A stretch of DNA of 64,000 nt from Alphaproteobacteria bacterium (GTDB lineage: Bacteria > Pseudomonadota > Alphaproteobacteria > Micavibrionales > UBA2020), in contig JAICWS010000002.1 in NCBI GenBank assembly GCA_025934695.1, positions 496,001 through 560,000 on the forward strand. The letters run 5' to 3'. Positions 54,562 through 59,986 of the stretch are shown here, in pieces. Both the position numbers and the translations under genes were made by a program. The first letter of the stretch is position 1; each line of letters begins with the position of its first letter. The notes below the pieces were generated by a model. The model was not told the DNA's origin, made no database searches, and saw only the letters and a list, made by a program, of their open reading frames with translations.

Positions 54562-54565
54562 TTAC

Positions 54566-54677
54566 ACCTTCCGTAACCCCGGCGGAAGCCGGGGTCTAGC
54601 ATCTTTCAATGGGAGCGGTGGTCATTGATCCACCGCTCAAGCCGATAAATCTTAGACCCCGGCTTTTGCCGGGGTTA
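54566..54677. repeat. Large palindromic repeat between lpdA and hutU
   Basis: Two hairpins (GTAACCCCGGCGGAAGCCGGGGTC and GACCCCGGCTTTTGCCGGGGTTAC) are inverted copies of each other around a central GAGCGGTGGTCATTGATCCACCGCTC palindrome. The full element is almost perfectly symmetric. It fills the gap between the lpdA stop and hutU. Confidence 0.8.
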
Positions 54678-54681
54678 CAAG

Positions 54682-56088
54682 TCAAATGTGGATGGCACGG
54701 CCATCCACCGCCAGCGCCGCTTCCTTGACCGCTTCGTTGAGGGTCGGATGCGCGTGGCAGGTGCGGGCGATGTCTTCGGATGAGCCGCCGAATTCCATGG
54801 CGAGGGCGACTTCCGCGATCATCGTGCCGGCTTCGGCGCCGACAATGTGGCAGCCCAGCACGCGGTCGGTTTTCGCGTCAGCCAGAATCTTGACGAAGCC
54901 TTCGGTCGCGTTCATCGCGCGAGCGCGGCCGTTCGCCATGAAGGGGAATTTGCCGGCCTTATATTCGACGCTGGCTTCCTTCAGCTGTTCTTCCGTCTTG
55001 CCGACCGAGGCGACCTCGGGAAAGGTATAAACTACGTTCGGGATCGCGTCGTAATTGATATGGCCCGACTGCCCCGCGATGATCTCGGCGCAGACCACGC
55101 CTTCATCTTCCGCCTTATGCGCCAGCATCGCTCCGCGCACCACGTCGCCGATCGCGTAAATGCCTTTCACATTGGTCTGGAAATGATCGTCAATCTCGAC
55201 CCGGCCGCGATTGTCGACCTTAACGCCCGCCTTTTCGAGGCCGAGGCCCGACGTATAAGGGCGGCGGCCGATACTCAGCAGTACGGTCTCGACTTCCAGC
55301 TTCTCGGCCGCGCCGCCATTGGCGGGTTCCAGCGTCAGCGTCACCTTGTCCTTGCCGGTCTGCGCGCCGGTGACTTTCGTGGATAGTTTCAATTCCATGC
55401 CCTGCTTGGTCATGACCTTCTTCATCTCTTTCGAGACTTCCAGGTCCATGCCGGGCAGCAACCGGTCCATGAATTCGATGACGGTCACCTTCGCGCCCAG
55501 GCGCTGCCAGACCGAGCCCATCTCGAGCCCGATCACGCCGCCGCCGATGACGGCGAGGGAAGCGGGAACTTTCGCCAATGCAAGCGCGCCGGTCGAGGTC
55601 ACGATCTGCTTCTCGTCGACCGCAATGCCGTTGAGCGGCGTGCTTTCCGAACCCGTGGCAATGACGATGTTCTTGGCCGAGACGGTTTTCTTGCCGTCCT
55701 TGCCGGAAATTTCGACGGTGCCGGGCGCGGTGATGGTGCCGAGGCCCATGAGATGGTCGACCTTGTTCTTCTTGAACAGGAAGCCGATGCCCTTGGTGTT
55801 CGCGTCGACGACCTTGTCCTTGAAAGCCATCATTTTCTTGATGTCGATTTTCGGCGCGTTGACTTCGATGCCAATGGTCGAAAAATCATGCGCCGCATGC
55901 TCGTATTTCTCCGAGACCGAGAGCAGGGCTTTCGACGGTATGCAGCCCACGTTCAGGCAGGTGCCGCCCAGCGTATTGTCTTTTTCGACGCAGGCCGTTT
56001 TCAGGCCCAGCTGCGCCGCGCGAATCGCGCAGACATATCCGCCGGGGCCGGAGCCGATCACCACCACATCGTATTGCGCATCTGCCAT
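54682..56088 (-). CDS. lpdA: Dihydrolipoyl dehydrogenase (E3)
   Basis: This flavin disulfide oxidoreductase (468 aa) reoxidises the lipoyl group of SucB and of related complexes. FAD binding is in GSGPGGYVCAI at 12-22, the redox disulfide is C44-C49 in GGTCLNVGC, the NAD domain has GGGVIGLEMGSVW near 185, and the catalytic His is in CHAHPTLNEAV near the C-terminus. In many relatives it follows sucB directly. Here the hut cluster lies between them and lpdA is reversed, so it is transcribed separately. Confidence 0.96.
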   Translation of the reverse strand: MADAQYDVVVIGSGPGGYVCAIRAAQLGLKTACVEKDNTLGGTCLNVGCIPSKALLSVSEKYEHAAHDFSTIGIEVNAPKIDIKKMMAFKDKVVDANTKGIGFLFKKNKVDHLMGLGTITAPGTVEISGKDGKKTVSAKNIVIATGSESTPLNGIAVDEKQIVTSTGALALAKVPASLAVIGGGVIGLEMGSVWQRLGAKVTVIEFMDRLLPGMDLEVSKEMKKVMTKQGMELKLSTKVTGAQTGKDKVTLTLEPANGGAAEKLEVETVLLSIGRRPYTSGLGLEKAGVKVDNRGRVEIDDHFQTNVKGIYAIGDVVRGAMLAHKAEDEGVVCAEIIAGQSGHINYDAIPNVVYTFPEVASVGKTEEQLKEASVEYKAGKFPFMANGRARAMNATEGFVKILADAKTDRVLGCHIVGAEAGTMIAEVALAMEFGGSSEDIARTCHAHPTLNEAVKEAALAVDGRAIHI

Positions 56089-56197
56089 GATTTTGTCCCT
56101 TTTTTTGACGGGCCCAATTTATCGCAAAGCCCTTGGTCTATCGAGTCAATTTGGCGTTCAAAAATTATGTCTATCGCCTTGTATTTCCATAACAAAT

Positions 56198-56226
56198 TTG
56201 ACAGAGTATCGCAGCTTTGATATTCA
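56198..56226 (+). promoter_or_regulatory. Sigma70-like promoter of small RNA copy A
   Basis: A perfect -35 TTGACA (56198-56203) is followed after 17 bases by TATTCA (56221-56226), giving a predicted start near 56233. Copies B and C keep the same geometry, which supports function. Confidence 0.65.
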
Positions 56227-56232
56227 GGAGTC

Positions 56233-56353
56233 TTCGACAAAATCCATCTCCGTGGTTGTCGAAGAAGTTTCTGGACCTTAACTGGACGAGCGGTCTGGAG
56301 AGTGTGTAAAAAACAAAAGAGGCCGGGCCCGTAACCCCGGCCTCTTTAATTTT
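56233..56353 (+). ncRNA. Tandem small RNA, copy A
   Basis: A predicted transcript of about 120 bases begins with a hairpin, TTCGACAA (56233-56240) pairing with TTGTCGAA (56256-56263), around a 15-base loop containing CATCTCCGTG. It then has an unpaired middle and ends in an intrinsic terminator (AAAGAGGCCGGG/CCCCGGCCTCTTT then AATTTT). The CTCC loop is complementary to Shine-Dalgarno purines, as in known alphaproteobacterial trans-acting RNAs. This is inference, and the 5' end is estimated. Confidence 0.7.
56316..56353 (+). terminator. Intrinsic terminator of small RNA copy A
   Basis: The stem AAAGAGGCCGGG (56316-56327) pairs with CCCGGCCTCTTT and runs into TAATTTT. The same terminator sequence ends copies B and C. 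Confidence 0.8.
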
Positions 56354-56469
56354 GGGCGGCATTCTACAATGGGTAGGCCTATGGGAGGTCCCACCCCGCG
56401 ACGATGATTTCCATAATAATTTCAAATACCTGTCATCGGAAAGGAAGTGCAAATTTTTTCATAAATTGT

Positions 56470-56498
56470 TTGACCCGAATCGGTCGTTTTGATATTCG
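56470..56498 (+). promoter_or_regulatory. Sigma70-like promoter of small RNA copy B
   Basis: TTGACC (56470-56475), a 17-base spacer and TATTCG (56493-56498). The stretch upstream (TTTTTTCATAAATTGT) is repeated before copy C. Confidence 0.6.
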
Positions 56499-56504
56499 GG
56501 AGTC

Positions 56505-56616
56505 TTCGACAAAATCCATCTCCGTGGTTGTCGAGGAGTTTCTGGACAAACTGAAGTCATAGAGAGTGTGTAAAATATAAGAGGCCGGGCCCGTAACCCC
56601 GGCCTCTTCAATTTTC
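56505..56616 (+). ncRNA. Tandem small RNA, copy B
   Basis: The predicted transcript has the same design as copy A. Its 5' stem is TTCGACAA (56505-56512)/TTGTCGA (56528-56534), with the loop carrying CATCTCCGTGG. The middle GAGTTTCTGGACAAACTGAA is shared with copy C. The terminator AAGAGGCCGGG/CCCCGGCCTCTT spans 56579-56608 and is followed by CAATTTT. Confidence 0.7.
56579..56615 (+). terminator. Intrinsic terminator of small RNA copy B
   Basis: AAGAGGCCGGG (56579-56589) pairs with CCCGGCCTCTT (56598-56608) and is followed by CAATTTT. It is nearly identical to the copy A terminator. Confidence 0.8.
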
Positions 56617-56795
56617 GGCGGGCAGGCGGCCGCATGGCATGCGAAAGAAATATAAGCTTGGCTTTGCGAGCGGGGTTTGAACGGGAATACGTCGACCCAA
56701 AAGACATCCCGGGGCATCAGGAGAGCACACGCAAACCCTATTTAATTTTCCATATTAAATAATTGTTTTTGAACGCAGATTTTTTCATAAATTGT

Positions 56796-56824
56796 TTGAC
56801 CCGAATCTCCCGTTTTGATATTCG
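56796..56824 (+). promoter_or_regulatory. Sigma70-like promoter of small RNA copy C
   Basis: TTGACC (56796-56801), a 17-base spacer and TATTCG (56819-56824), the same boxes as copy B. Confidence 0.6.
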
Positions 56825-56830
56825 GGAGTC

Positions 56831-56937
56831 TTCGACAAAATTCATCTCCGTGTTGTCGAGGAGTTTCTGGACAAACTGAAGTCATAGAGAGAGTGTGTAA
56901 CGAGAGGCCGGGCCCGTAACCCCGGCCTCTTGAATTT
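56831..56937 (+). ncRNA. Tandem small RNA, copy C
   Basis: This is the third copy of the unit. The stem is TTCGACAA (56831-56838)/TTGTCGA (56853-56859), with the loop ATTCATCTCCGTG one base shorter and with one substitution, leaving CATCTCCGTG unchanged. The middle GAGTTTCTGGACAAACTGAA and the GAGAGGCCGGG terminator are conserved. It ends about 115 bases before the start codon of the next gene, so it could be a separate RNA or the upstream part of that gene's leader. Confidence 0.68.
56903..56937 (+). terminator. Intrinsic terminator of small RNA copy C
   Basis: AGAGGCCGGG (56903-56912) pairs with CCCGGCCTCT (56921-56930), followed by TGAATTTT. Confidence 0.78.
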
Positions 56938-57051: not shown

Positions 57052-58023
57052 ATGAAAAAAGCGCGGTTGGAAGACGGCCAAGTCGTCCTGGCTCATCAGT
57101 TCAACAAGGCGGTCCATGCGGGCCAGCTGCTCTGCGCCGATCCTAACTGCACTGCGCATATGGTCTTTCGCAAGGAATCCCTGACCCACGGCGCCTCGGC
57201 GATCCGCAGCGCCTCCTTCGTATCCAAGGCGGTCAGCGACCATATCGCCCATTGCTCCGCGCACGAAGATTTCGCGATCCTGGCGCGCACGAAAAAGAGC
57301 ATCGAGCAGGCGCTGAAAGACGACAAGACCTCGATCATCATCAACCTCAACATGGCGCTCACCGACGACTTCAACAATGTCGCGCGCGATCTCGTCTGCG
57401 TTCCCTCCACCTTCGAAAAAGGCACTTATGTCACGGCTTCCGCGAAAAGCGTCGAAGACGTGCTCGACTACATCAAAACCATCGAGGAAAAGGGCGGCAA
57501 GCAGGGTCTGGCCAAGACCTTCGTCAACTACAAGAGCAAGACGATGCCGGTCACGGATTTCGTCATCGACAGCGAAGATAAATACCGCGACCTTCTCAAC
57601 AAGCTTTACAAAAAGGTCGACACCGCCAGGCCGGAAGCCGATCTCGCCGACTTCCCGCGCCTGATCGACTTCAAGGCCACGAAGCGCTCGCGGGGCCTCG
57701 ATGAAGGCGATCTGTTCGGCACGCCGGTGGGCATCATGAAAGCGCAGGGCAACAAGGTCGTGCTGCTGCAGGCGGCCGATGTTCCGCCCGAGTTCCAGAC
57801 CACCCTGCGCGGCGAAAACGTTCATATCGTCGCCATTCCGCGGCTCGACCTGACGGAGGCGAAAAAGGTCCTCCAGCGCCTGCGCAACACCGCGAATTCG
57901 AAATCCTACCTTCACATGCATTGGAAAGTCGTGGGCGCGCATCAGTTCACGCCCATTGAAACGCCGGAGCCGGCGCAGCAGCCCAAACCGGCGCCGGGCC
58001 AGCAAACCTCCTTCGGGATTTAA
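57052..58023 (+). CDS. Hypothetical protein with N-terminal Cys/His cluster
   Basis: This 323-residue soluble protein has C28 and C33 in LLCADPNCTAHMVFR, and H64, H67 and C68 in SDHIAHC, a likely zinc site. The arrangement recalls the N-terminal zinc ribbon of CoiA-like competence nucleases, but no nuclease motif was identified, so this is a weak suggestion. The remainder is mixed alpha/beta, and the tail is Pro/Gln-rich (PEPAQQPKPAPGQQ). ATG 57052 follows GAGGG; a TTG at 57037 is an alternative. It lies just downstream of the triple small-RNA array. Confidence 0.7.
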   Translation: MKKARLEDGQVVLAHQFNKAVHAGQLLCADPNCTAHMVFRKESLTHGASAIRSASFVSKAVSDHIAHCSAHEDFAILARTKKSIEQALKDDKTSIIINLNMALTDDFNNVARDLVCVPSTFEKGTYVTASAKSVEDVLDYIKTIEEKGGKQGLAKTFVNYKSKTMPVTDFVIDSEDKYRDLLNKLYKKVDTARPEADLADFPRLIDFKATKRSRGLDEGDLFGTPVGIMKAQGNKVVLLQAADVPPEFQTTLRGENVHIVAIPRLDLTEAKKVLQRLRNTANSKSYLHMHWKVVGAHQFTPIETPEPAQQPKPAPGQQTSFGI

Positions 58024-58090
58024 GCCGCCATTATATGGCTTGATTTTACCGCCTGAAGCCTGATTTCATGGGGTGGAGGAAGGCTCCATC

Positions 58091-59986
58091 ATGTCATCCG
58101 ACAGCCGCCCGGCCAGCCGGGCGCAGCAACTGCATGAAGAGGCGATACGCACGCTCACCGCGGGGCGCGTCGACGAAGGCATGGCGCTGCTCAAAAAAGC
58201 GCTCGCCGCTGCCGAAGGCTCGCCGATGGCCAGCAGCATCATCCTGAACGACCTCGGCATGGCCTGCTGGCAGAAGGGCCAGCTGACGGCCGCCGAGAAG
58301 CATTACAAAAAGGCGGTCACGCTGGGGCCGATGAACGCCCGGGCCCTTGGCAATTACGGCGCCTTCCTCGTCGAGCAAAAACGCCTCGACGAGGCCGAAC
58401 CGATGCTCAAGCAAGCGCTCGCGATGCTGCCCGGCCATTACAAGATCCAGAGCGACTATGGCCGACTGATGCACCGACGGGGCCGGCTTGCGACCGCGGA
58501 ACGGCATTACCTGGAGGCGATCCGCCTCAATCCCGAATGGGTCAACGCCTATTGCAATCTCGGCGACCTGCTGGTGGAAATGAATCGCCACGAGGAAGCG
58601 GCAAGCGCCTACGTGGCGGCCTTGAAGCTGCGGCCCAAAAACGTCGCCGCACATAACGGCATGGGCAAGCTCTGCGTCAAGATGAAGCGCTTCGACGAGG
58701 CGCTCGACTGGTTTAACAAGGCCCTCGCGCTGGATCCGGCGCTGGAACGCTCATGGGAGCGCAAGCTCAACCTGCTCGAGCGCACGCATCGGCTCGAGGA
58801 AGCGGAAGAGGCGCTGAAACAGGCAAAAGCAGCCTGTCCGAATTCCCTCAACATCGGTTCCATCGAGGCGCGCCTGCTGCGCCGCGCCGGGAAACTCGAC
58901 GAGGCGATCGCGCTGCTGGAGAAGCTGCGCCCCGCGGCGGAACAGCTCGAGAAAACCGACCCGCAATTGCTCTGGGGCATACTGTTCGAACTGGCCGAAC
59001 TTTACGACCGCACGGATCGCTATGACGCCGCCTTCGCCAGCATGGCGCGCGCCAAGGCCGGCGAGGCGAACGATGTCAAGGCGCTCGCCTACGACAAAGA
59101 CGAGCTTCCCCTGCGGGTCGGCATCCTGAACGATCTTTTCACGCCCAATCTCGCGAGAAGGCCTGGCGCCGCGCCCTTGGCCAAGGCGCCTGTTTTTCTG
59201 GTGGGATTCCCGCGCTCCGGCACCACGCTGCTCGACCAGATATTGTCGAGCCATCCGAAGATCCGCGTGGCCGACGAAGAGCCCGCTGTCGACAAAATGG
59301 CGCGCGACATCGTCGATGCTTATGCCGCAAGCTTTCCGCGCCGCAAACAGGGCAATGCCGGCCATCCGGCGTTGGCGGCGCTGGCGGACCTCACGCTTGA
59401 AGATGTGCAGGCGATGCGCAAACGTTTCTTTGCCGAACATGGCGCCTGGACGGAAAACTGGGACGGCGTCTTTATCGACAAACTGCCGCTCAATATTATC
59501 CATGCCGGCCTGATCGGGCGCACCTTTCCGGGGACAAAGTTCATCCTTGCGCTGCGCCACCCGTGCGATGCCGTTCTCAGCTGTTATTTAAGGCGCTTCG
59601 ACCTGAACACCGCGATGGTCCAGTTCTTCAGCCTCGAGGATGCGGCACAGTTCTATGATGCCGTTTTCCGCTTATGGGAACATTATAATAGCGTTCTGAA
59701 GCTCGATGTGCATGCCATCCACTATGAAGATGTCGTCAGCGATTTCCGTCCGGCGGTAGGGCCCCTGCTCGATTTCCTCGGCTTGGCCTGGGACGATGCG
59801 GTTCTTGAATATGACCGCACCGCGCGCGAGAAGGCGCATATCAGCACGCCCAGCTATCACCAGGTCACGCAGAAAATCTACACGCGCGCCAGCGGCCGCT
59901 GGCTGCGCTACCGAAAGCATATGGAACCCGTGCTGCCGATCCTGGCGCCTTGGGTAAATAAGTTCGGCTATTCAATGGATCAGTGA
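58091..59986 (+). CDS. TPR-repeat sulfotransferase
   Basis: In this 631-residue protein, residues about 10-240 form five or six tetratricopeptide repeats (for example AEKHYKKAVTLGPMNARALGNYG and EAASAYVAALKLRPKNVAAHNGMG, each broken here into under 25 residues). Residues about 365-620 form a sulfotransferase domain with the PAPS-binding start VFLVGFPRSGTTLLDQ near 368 and IHYEDVVSDF later. The acceptor is unknown and could be a polysaccharide or protein. The ATG lies 7 bases after GGAGGAAGG. The stop overlaps the convergent KTSC gene by 7 bases. Confidence 0.85.
   Translation: MSSDSRPASRAQQLHEEAIRTLTAGRVDEGMALLKKALAAAEGSPMASSIILNDLGMACWQKGQLTAAEKHYKKAVTLGPMNARALGNYGAFLVEQKRLDEAEPMLKQALAMLPGHYKIQSDYGRLMHRRGRLATAERHYLEAIRLNPEWVNAYCNLGDLLVEMNRHEEAASAYVAALKLRPKNVAAHNGMGKLCVKMKRFDEALDWFNKALALDPALERSWERKLNLLERTHRLEEAEEALKQAKAACPNSLNIGSIEARLLRRAGKLDEAIALLEKLRPAAEQLEKTDPQLLWGILFELAELYDRTDRYDAAFASMARAKAGEANDVKALAYDKDELPLRVGILNDLFTPNLARRPGAAPLAKAPVFLVGFPRSGTTLLDQILSSHPKIRVADEEPAVDKMARDIVDAYAASFPRRKQGNAGHPALAALADLTLEDVQAMRKRFFAEHGAWTENWDGVFIDKLPLNIIHAGLIGRTFPGTKFILALRHPCDAVLSCYLRRFDLNTAMVQFFSLEDAAQFYDAVFRLWEHYNSVLKLDVHAIHYEDVVSDFRPAVGPLLDFLGLAWDDAVLEYDRTAREKAHISTPSYHQVTQKIYTRASGRWLRYRKHMEPVLPILAPWVNKFGYSMDQ

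What the first reader, a model, noticed from the sequence alone, without database searches (positions are those of the whole stretch)
56198..56937. Triple tandem small-RNA locus with shared promoters, hairpin loop and terminators
Three copies of one unit follow each other in a 960-base gap between lpdA and the gene at 57052. Each has a TTGAC[A/C] -35, exactly 17 bases, TATTC[A/G], a TTCGACAA/TTGTCGA stem with a CATCTCCGTG loop, and the same GAGGCCGGG terminator. Copies B and C also share GAGTTTCTGGACAAACTGAA, and copy A has diverged in the middle. Constant ends with a drifting middle suggest sibling trans-acting RNAs, perhaps base-pairing through the CTCC loop with ribosome-binding sites. I do not recognise the family. 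Tandem sibling RNAs with CU-rich loops are known in Alphaproteobacteria, so the idea has precedent.
Basis: partly seen in the sequence, partly recalled or inferred. Interest (0 to 1): 0.85.

Follow-up and report, generated by a model that had tools for sequence, protein, structure and literature searches.

The report
Tandem small-RNA genes with methylation-type promoters
Three sibling small-RNA genes sit side by side next to a central metabolism gene in an uncultured Micavibrio-like bacterium; relatives keep them, and their promoters carry the DNA-methylation sites that other alphaproteobacteria use to time genes to the cell cycle, so these RNAs may be switched on at a set stage of each cycle.

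Summary
In detail: three units (A 56198-56350, B 56470-56612, C 56796-56936), each with a TTGAC-N18-TATTC promoter (3 in the window, 0.03 expected), a hairpin with AUCUCC in its loop, a second short hairpin and a strong terminator hairpin. No Rfam family matches. Homologues occur only in one family of Micavibrio-like bacteria (nine genomes, three genera, one to three or more copies, beside lpdA); none in 384 other genomes of the class. Units stay 75-96% alike between copies while the spacers between them do not align, orthologous copies are kept between species, and terminator pairs covary. This is a conserved sRNA family, not a fresh duplication.

New here: the promoters carry GANTC (CcrM methylation) sites at fixed places. 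20 of 21 family promoters have one in the -35/-10 spacer (about 1 expected), and all 17 typical units have another just before the start; the N base changes while GA..TC stays. The genome encodes CcrM, GcrA and Hfq, and the only other promoter of this design shared with a sister species precedes a DUF4164-zapA (cell division) operon. Best reading: GcrA/CcrM-timed sibling trans-acting sRNAs. Expression, timing and targets are untested.

The parts
56198..56226 (+). copy A promoter: -35 TTGACA 56198-56203, 17-nt spacer without GANTC, -10 TATTCA 56221-56226
56228..56232 (+). copy A GANTC site (GAGTC) between -10 and the presumed start
56231..56265 (+). copy A hairpin 1, loop with AUCUCC at 56246-56251
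56268..56308 (+). copy A hairpin 2 and GAGAGUGUGU element
56316..56347 (+). copy A terminator hairpin
56470..56498 (+). copy B promoter: TTGACC 56470-56475, GAATC (GANTC) 56477-56481, TATTCG 56493-56498
56500..56504 (+). copy B GANTC site (GAGTC) before the presumed start
56503..56537 (+). copy B hairpin 1, loop with AUCUCC at 56518-56523
56539..56571 (+). copy B hairpin 2 and UAGAGAGUGUGU element
56579..56608 (+). copy B terminator hairpin
56796..56824 (+). copy C promoter: TTGACC 56796-56801, GAATC (GANTC) 56803-56807, TATTCG 56819-56824
56826..56830 (+). copy C GANTC site (GAGTC) before the presumed start
56829..56862 (+). copy C hairpin 1, loop with AUCUCC at 56844-56849
56864..56898 (+). 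copy C hairpin 2 and UAGAGAGAGUGUGU element
56901..56932 (+). copy C terminator hairpin
54682..56088 (-). lpdA, dihydrolipoyl dehydrogenase, the constant divergent neighbour
   Evidence: TIGR01350 E 3.2e-180
57052..58020 (+). conserved protein of unknown function, downstream neighbour; no Pfam or NCBIfam match
   Evidence: same neighbour seen in same-genus loci

Best explanation
The locus holds three independently transcribed sibling small RNAs of about 110-125 nt, members of one conserved family found so far only in one family of Micavibrio-like bacteria. Each has its own sigma70-type promoter and its own terminator. CcrM-methylated GANTC sites next to the -35 element and just before the start make these promoters targets of the GcrA-sigma70 system, so B and C (and A less or differently, as it lacks the spacer site) would be transcribed in a defined part of the cell cycle. 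The RNAs would then act in trans, with Hfq, by pairing the exposed AUCUCC loop (an anti-Shine-Dalgarno sequence) with GGAGAU-like ribosome-binding sites and blocking translation. Shown by sequence: units, promoters, GANTC conservation, structure, constraint, presence of CcrM, GcrA and Hfq. Inferred: transcription, methylation, cell-cycle timing, Hfq binding, targets and repression.
For: Three promoters of one design, 0.03 expected. Folding z -4.2 to -5.2. Homologues in nine genomes of three genera, E 1e-12 or better. 96.5% of structure cells paired, 10 pairs with changes on both sides, neither reached by any of 500 shuffles; 9 of 11 terminator pairs covary; slid structures fall to 48-58%. Units 75-96% identical within genomes while 60-nt flanks are near shuffled level; G002b/G003b unit 100%, flanks about 80%. 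Copies are orthologous across species (A with G001a 99/94; G002b with G003b; G002c with G003c). GANTC in 20 of 21 spacers (19 scored by the script plus G002c, which it mis-parsed), shuffled mean 1.15, maximum 6 in 2000 rounds; only two offsets are used. N varies while GA..TC stays at both sites (GAATC/GACTC, GAGTC/GAATC). CcrM: NF050803 E 2.6e-188 with RAMA domain; GcrA: NF050816 E 5.5e-48; Hfq. Same design before DUF4164-zapA in G000 and G001, reversed-pattern control 0. In Caulobacter the GANTC of ctrA P1 lies at -28/-29, and GANTC sites between -10 and -35 mark promoters activated at 40-60 min (PMC4287350); GcrA footprints the -35 and adjacent GANTC of ctrA P1 (PMC3667746). AUCUCC is 70-100% unpaired.
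Against: No RNA-seq or methylome was available. Copy A has no spacer GANTC. The sites do not fully match the Caulobacter YGAKTCK extended motif. Mutating the ctrA P1 GANTC left its activity unchanged in Caulobacter (PMC3667746), so position alone does not prove control. Stem 1 support is mostly one-sided wobble changes (one pair with a change on both sides), and hairpin 2 hardly varies. The g2 genus unit (L100) lacks AUCUCC. Duplex tests with eleven start regions gave nothing that survives multiple testing. NCBIfam scores of CcrM and GcrA are below the Caulobacter-based curated cut-offs, although Pfam cut-offs are passed.
Confidence: 0.45

Rival explanations
1. Ordinary sibling trans-acting sRNAs whose promoters are controlled by some other regulator or are constitutive; the GANTC pattern reflects a different protein's site (the GACYCGAAT...ATTCGGGAGTC arms form an imperfect inverted repeat).
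For: All sRNA evidence above holds without GcrA; arms around the promoter are partly symmetric; copy A lacks the spacer site.
Against: N of GANTC varies while GA..TC stays, sites use two fixed offsets across four genera, and the same design stands before zapA; CcrM and GcrA are present.
Confidence: 0.3
2. The RNAs act mainly as sponges or protein-binding decoys, or through the UAGAG(A/G)GUGU element, rather than by anti-Shine-Dalgarno pairing of the AUCUCC loop.
For: TTTCT...TAGAG(A/G)GTGT is nearly invariant and, unlike AUCUCC, persists in G013 of genus g2; CrfA in Caulobacter shows that sRNA-sRNA sponging occurs in this class (PMC12559287).
Against: AUCUCC is invariant and exposed in three genera; no partner RNA is known.
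Confidence: 0.19
3. The units encode short peptides.
For: Copy B can be read GTG GTT GTC GAG GAG TTT CTG GAC AAA CTG AAG TCA TAG.
Against: The frame is broken by 1-nt differences between homologues (GAAGAAG versus GAAGAG or GAGGAG), copy C lacks the start codon in that frame, no Shine-Dalgarno sequence precedes it, and changes follow pairing, not codons.
Confidence: 0.03
4. Repetitive DNA (REP-like elements or a recent tandem duplication) without RNA function.
For: Tandem near-identical copies with palindromes.
Against: Copies occur only at this locus in the genome, are orthologous between species and conserved against freely diverging spacers.
Confidence: 0.03

Closest known systems
alphaR8 / suhB / MmgR / SisA-D (RF00519)
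   Same: Alphaproteobacterial sRNA family with several siblings, Rho-independent terminator, conserved anti-Shine-Dalgarno C/U-rich stretch
   Different: alphaR8 core is single-stranded UUUCCUCCCU below a weak hairpin, usually beside an FGase gene, with unrelated promoters for the four Caulobacter siblings (PMC12559287); here AUCUCC in a strong hairpin loop, beside lpdA, near-identical GANTC promoters; no RF00519 match on the sense strand or in the genome
NmsRA/NmsRB of Neisseria
   Same: Sibling sRNAs acting through anti-Shine-Dalgarno sequences
   Different: They control TCA-cycle enzymes and are under RelA (PMC5362039); relation to them by sequence was not tested beyond Rfam
EcpR1 of Sinorhizobium
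   Same: Alphaproteobacterial trans-sRNA with two stem-loop domains and a strongly conserved loop 1 that pairs with mRNAs; tied to the cell cycle
   Different: Stress-induced, encoded downstream of divK-pleD, represses gcrA and dnaA (PMC4414408); here the sRNA itself appears to be under GcrA/CcrM
GcrA/CcrM promoters of Caulobacter (ctrA P1, mipZ, podJ)
   Same: GANTC next to the -35 or between -35 and -10; CcrM and GcrA present
   Different: The studied cases are protein genes; here three consecutive sRNA promoters each carry GANTC (two of them at both places)

Membership tests
alphaR8 / suhB (RF00519) | covariance-model score at or above the gathering score (41 bits) | tested here: not met
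   no gathering hit in the window; best 18.4 bits and on the minus strand; none in the genome at E 0.001
alphaR8 / suhB (RF00519) | single-stranded UUUCCUCCCU core | tested here: not met
   the loop is AUCUCCGUG; no UUUCCUCCCU in the units
any Rfam 15 family | gathering-score match | tested here: not met
tandem sibling trans-acting sRNAs (class) | several homologous units, each with own promoter and terminator | tested here: met
tandem sibling trans-acting sRNAs (class) | stable transcripts that regulate mRNAs in trans | not testable with these tools
   no RNA-seq; duplex screen of eleven start regions inconclusive
GcrA/CcrM-controlled promoters | CcrM and GcrA encoded in the genome | tested here: met
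GcrA/CcrM-controlled promoters | conserved GANTC in the promoter, near the -35/-10 | tested here: met
   20 of 21 spacers, fixed offsets; window copy A is the exception
GcrA/CcrM-controlled promoters | Caulobacter extended motif YGAKTCK | tested here: not met
   spacer site reads CGAATCN on one strand and NGATTCG on the other, start site GGAGTCT; the extended motif showed no preference in Brevundimonas (PMC7987155)
GcrA/CcrM-controlled promoters | methylation and GcrA dependence of transcription | not testable with these tools
   needs methylome, ChIP and mutants

The most novel reading that the evidence does not exclude
A tandem array of small RNAs whose copies are each switched by CcrM methylation and GcrA, so that replication of the locus triggers a pulse of anti-Shine-Dalgarno RNA once per cell cycle in a predator-related lineage; copy number and loss of the site in copy A would tune that pulse.
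Probability: 0.35. Interest if true: 0.72.

Novelty: new member of a known kind. Interest (0 to 1): 0.5.

Why it matters
Cell-cycle timing by DNA methylation is best known for protein genes in alphaproteobacteria. A conserved sRNA family whose copies carry the methylation sites would link replication-coupled methylation directly to post-transcriptional control, in a lineage related to Micavibrio for which my paper search found no sRNA work. It also gives a defined family (model, loci, promoters) for testing why bacteria keep several near-identical sibling RNAs in a row.

Tried and rejected
Rfam at gathering and at permissive thresholds: nothing on the sense strand beyond chance. Wider homologues: 384 other genomes of the class gave none; the weak order-level hits (E 1e-4 to 0.008) are mostly generic terminators in unrelated contexts. 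L040 of G129 keeps AUCUCC in a loop, AGAGUGUGUG and a terminator but has no relatives among 98 family members except two short matches, so it is only a lead. Viral contigs: none. Peptide coding: frames break. Cis-acting leader of gene 57052 or lpdA: each unit ends in its own terminator, lpdA is divergent, and the G002 locus shows a separate TTGACA promoter for the downstream gene. Targets: loop and UAGAG element against start regions of gcrA, ccrM (two starts), zapA, DUF4164, hfq, lpdA, 57052, 58073, hutU and hutH gave best shuffle fractions 0.015 (58073) and 0.03 (ccrM), not significant for 22 tests.

Full report
What is there. Between lpdA (56088, minus strand) and a conserved gene of unknown function (57052, plus strand) three homologous units follow each other on the plus strand. 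Each has TTGAC[A/C], 17 bases, TATTC[A/G]; this arrangement occurs only these three times in the window, 0.03 expected. After it come a 9-10 bp stem whose loop contains AUCUCC, a UUUCU...AGAGA stem followed by GUGUGU, and a terminator hairpin of 11-12 pairs. The plus strands fold better than all 200 shuffles each; the minus strands less so. Rfam has no family for it.

Where else. The window lies in a 4.13 Mb, 99% complete genome, where the unit occurs only here. Homologues were found in the other five genomes of its genus and in three genomes of two other genera of its family, with one to three or more copies, upstream of lpdA. The NCBI taxonomy still lists Micavibrio under Bdellovibrionota. 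None of 384 other class members searched has it at E 0.001 (strict filters, so weak homologues may be missed). In a fourth genus (g2), the place upstream of lpdA holds a diverged unit: G013 keeps TTGACA, a spacer GAATC, a UCUCGACGG/CCGUCGAAGA hairpin, AUAGAGUGUGUC and a terminator with a CCGUAAC loop, but no AUCUCC; G009-G011 keep the promoter and terminator type only.

Constraint. Within a genome the units are 75-96% identical while the 60 bases on either side are about as alike as shuffled sequence; between G002 and G003 the middle unit is 100% identical with flanks near 80%. A tree groups copy A with the lpdA-proximal copy of G001, and the G002 b and c copies with their positional partners in G003, so the copies are old and kept apart (short sequences, several weak forks). 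On the structure-guided alignment 96.5% of cells pair, 10 pairs show double changes, and slid controls drop to about 55%. The covariation is concentrated in the terminator; the first stem changes mainly through G-U/G-C and U-A/U-G exchanges and the second hardly varies. The alignment was fitted to the structure, which favours it. Peptide coding is contradicted by frame-breaking single-base differences.

Promoters. Nearly every promoter of the family contains GANTC, the site of the CcrM methyltransferase, in the spacer: at offset 7 from the first base of the -35 (one base after the hexamer) or about 5 bases before the -10. It is present in 20 of 21; the script scored 19 because it mis-parsed G002c, whose listed offsets 7 and 30 show the site; shuffled spacers give a mean of 1.15. 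These promoters are related, so they are not 21 independent cases. The stronger points are that the N base changes (GAATC to GACTC in G014; GAGTC to GAATC at the start site in G017b, G014 and G016) while GA and TC do not, that neighbouring spacer bases vary, and that the spacer site persists in all four genera. All 17 typical units have a second GANTC one base after the -10. GANTC is otherwise sparse: 109 in 64 kb, about half of the random expectation. If the start lies seven bases after the -10, the spacer site begins at -28. In Caulobacter, ctrA P1 has its GANTC at -28/-29, GANTC between -10 and -35 marks promoters activated at 40-60 min (PMC4287350), and GcrA protects the -35 and adjacent GANTC of ctrA P1 (PMC3667746). 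The window's genome encodes CcrM (with RAMA domain), GcrA and Hfq. A pattern search for this promoter design in the genus returned the sRNA promoters and few others, with none for the reversed control; the only other site shared by two species (G000, G001) stands before a DUF4164-zapA operon, followed in G000 by 6S RNA and a 5-formyltetrahydrofolate cyclo-ligase gene. ZapA is a cell-division protein, and cell-division genes (ftsZ, ftsN, mipZ) are among those that depend on CcrM in Caulobacter (PMC3973325); zapA itself is not named there.

How it most likely works. GcrA-sigma70 reads the methylated sites and fires B and C (A, without the spacer site, less or differently) at a set stage of the cell cycle; the RNAs end at their own terminators, bind Hfq, and pair the exposed AUCUCC loop with GGAGAU-like ribosome-binding sites. 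The transcription, methylation, timing, Hfq and target steps are inferred. The persistence of the UAGAG(A/G)GUGU element in the genus that lacks AUCUCC means that the effective site could instead be that element. A small duplex screen gave no target.

What it is not. It fails the tests for alphaR8/suhB, a multi-sibling anti-Shine-Dalgarno family of this class. It resembles NmsR siblings and EcpR1 in working principle only. It is best called a new family of a known kind, tandem sibling sRNAs, with a conserved methylation-type promoter.

Noticed in passing
L122:1318-1398 (G000:C3, upstream of ccrM): The 80 bases around the ccrM start hold several GANTC sites (GAATC, GATTC, GAGTC, GAATC, GATTC), suggesting that ccrM is itself methylation-controlled.
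   Followed up: no
L138:1501-2964 (G000:C2:889171 onwards): A promoter with GACTC at the same offset 7 and GAATC near the -10 precedes DUF4164-zapA, then 6S RNA and 5-formyltetrahydrofolate cyclo-ligase; the promoter is kept in G001.
   Followed up: partly
window 56143-56147: The divergent lpdA promoter region has its own GAGTC/GACTC (TTGACTCGATA on the lpdA strand), kept in G001, G002 and G005.
   Followed up: no
L040:1500-1680 minus strand (G129, another family of the order): Possible distant relative: loop with AUCUCCCC, AAAGAGUGUGUGUG and a terminator; no clear homologues in that family.
   Followed up: partly
L065, L066, L067 upstream of lpdA (genus g2): A different short RNA-like unit with GAATC in the promoter spacer and a CCGUAACA terminator loop stands at the same place.
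   Followed up: partly
window about 54565-54610: hutU is preceded by a strong hairpin (ACCCCGGCUUCCGCCGGGGU) directly before its ribosome-binding site.
   Followed up: no
window 58073-59986: TPR repeats fused to a sulfotransferase domain (PF13469).
   Followed up: no
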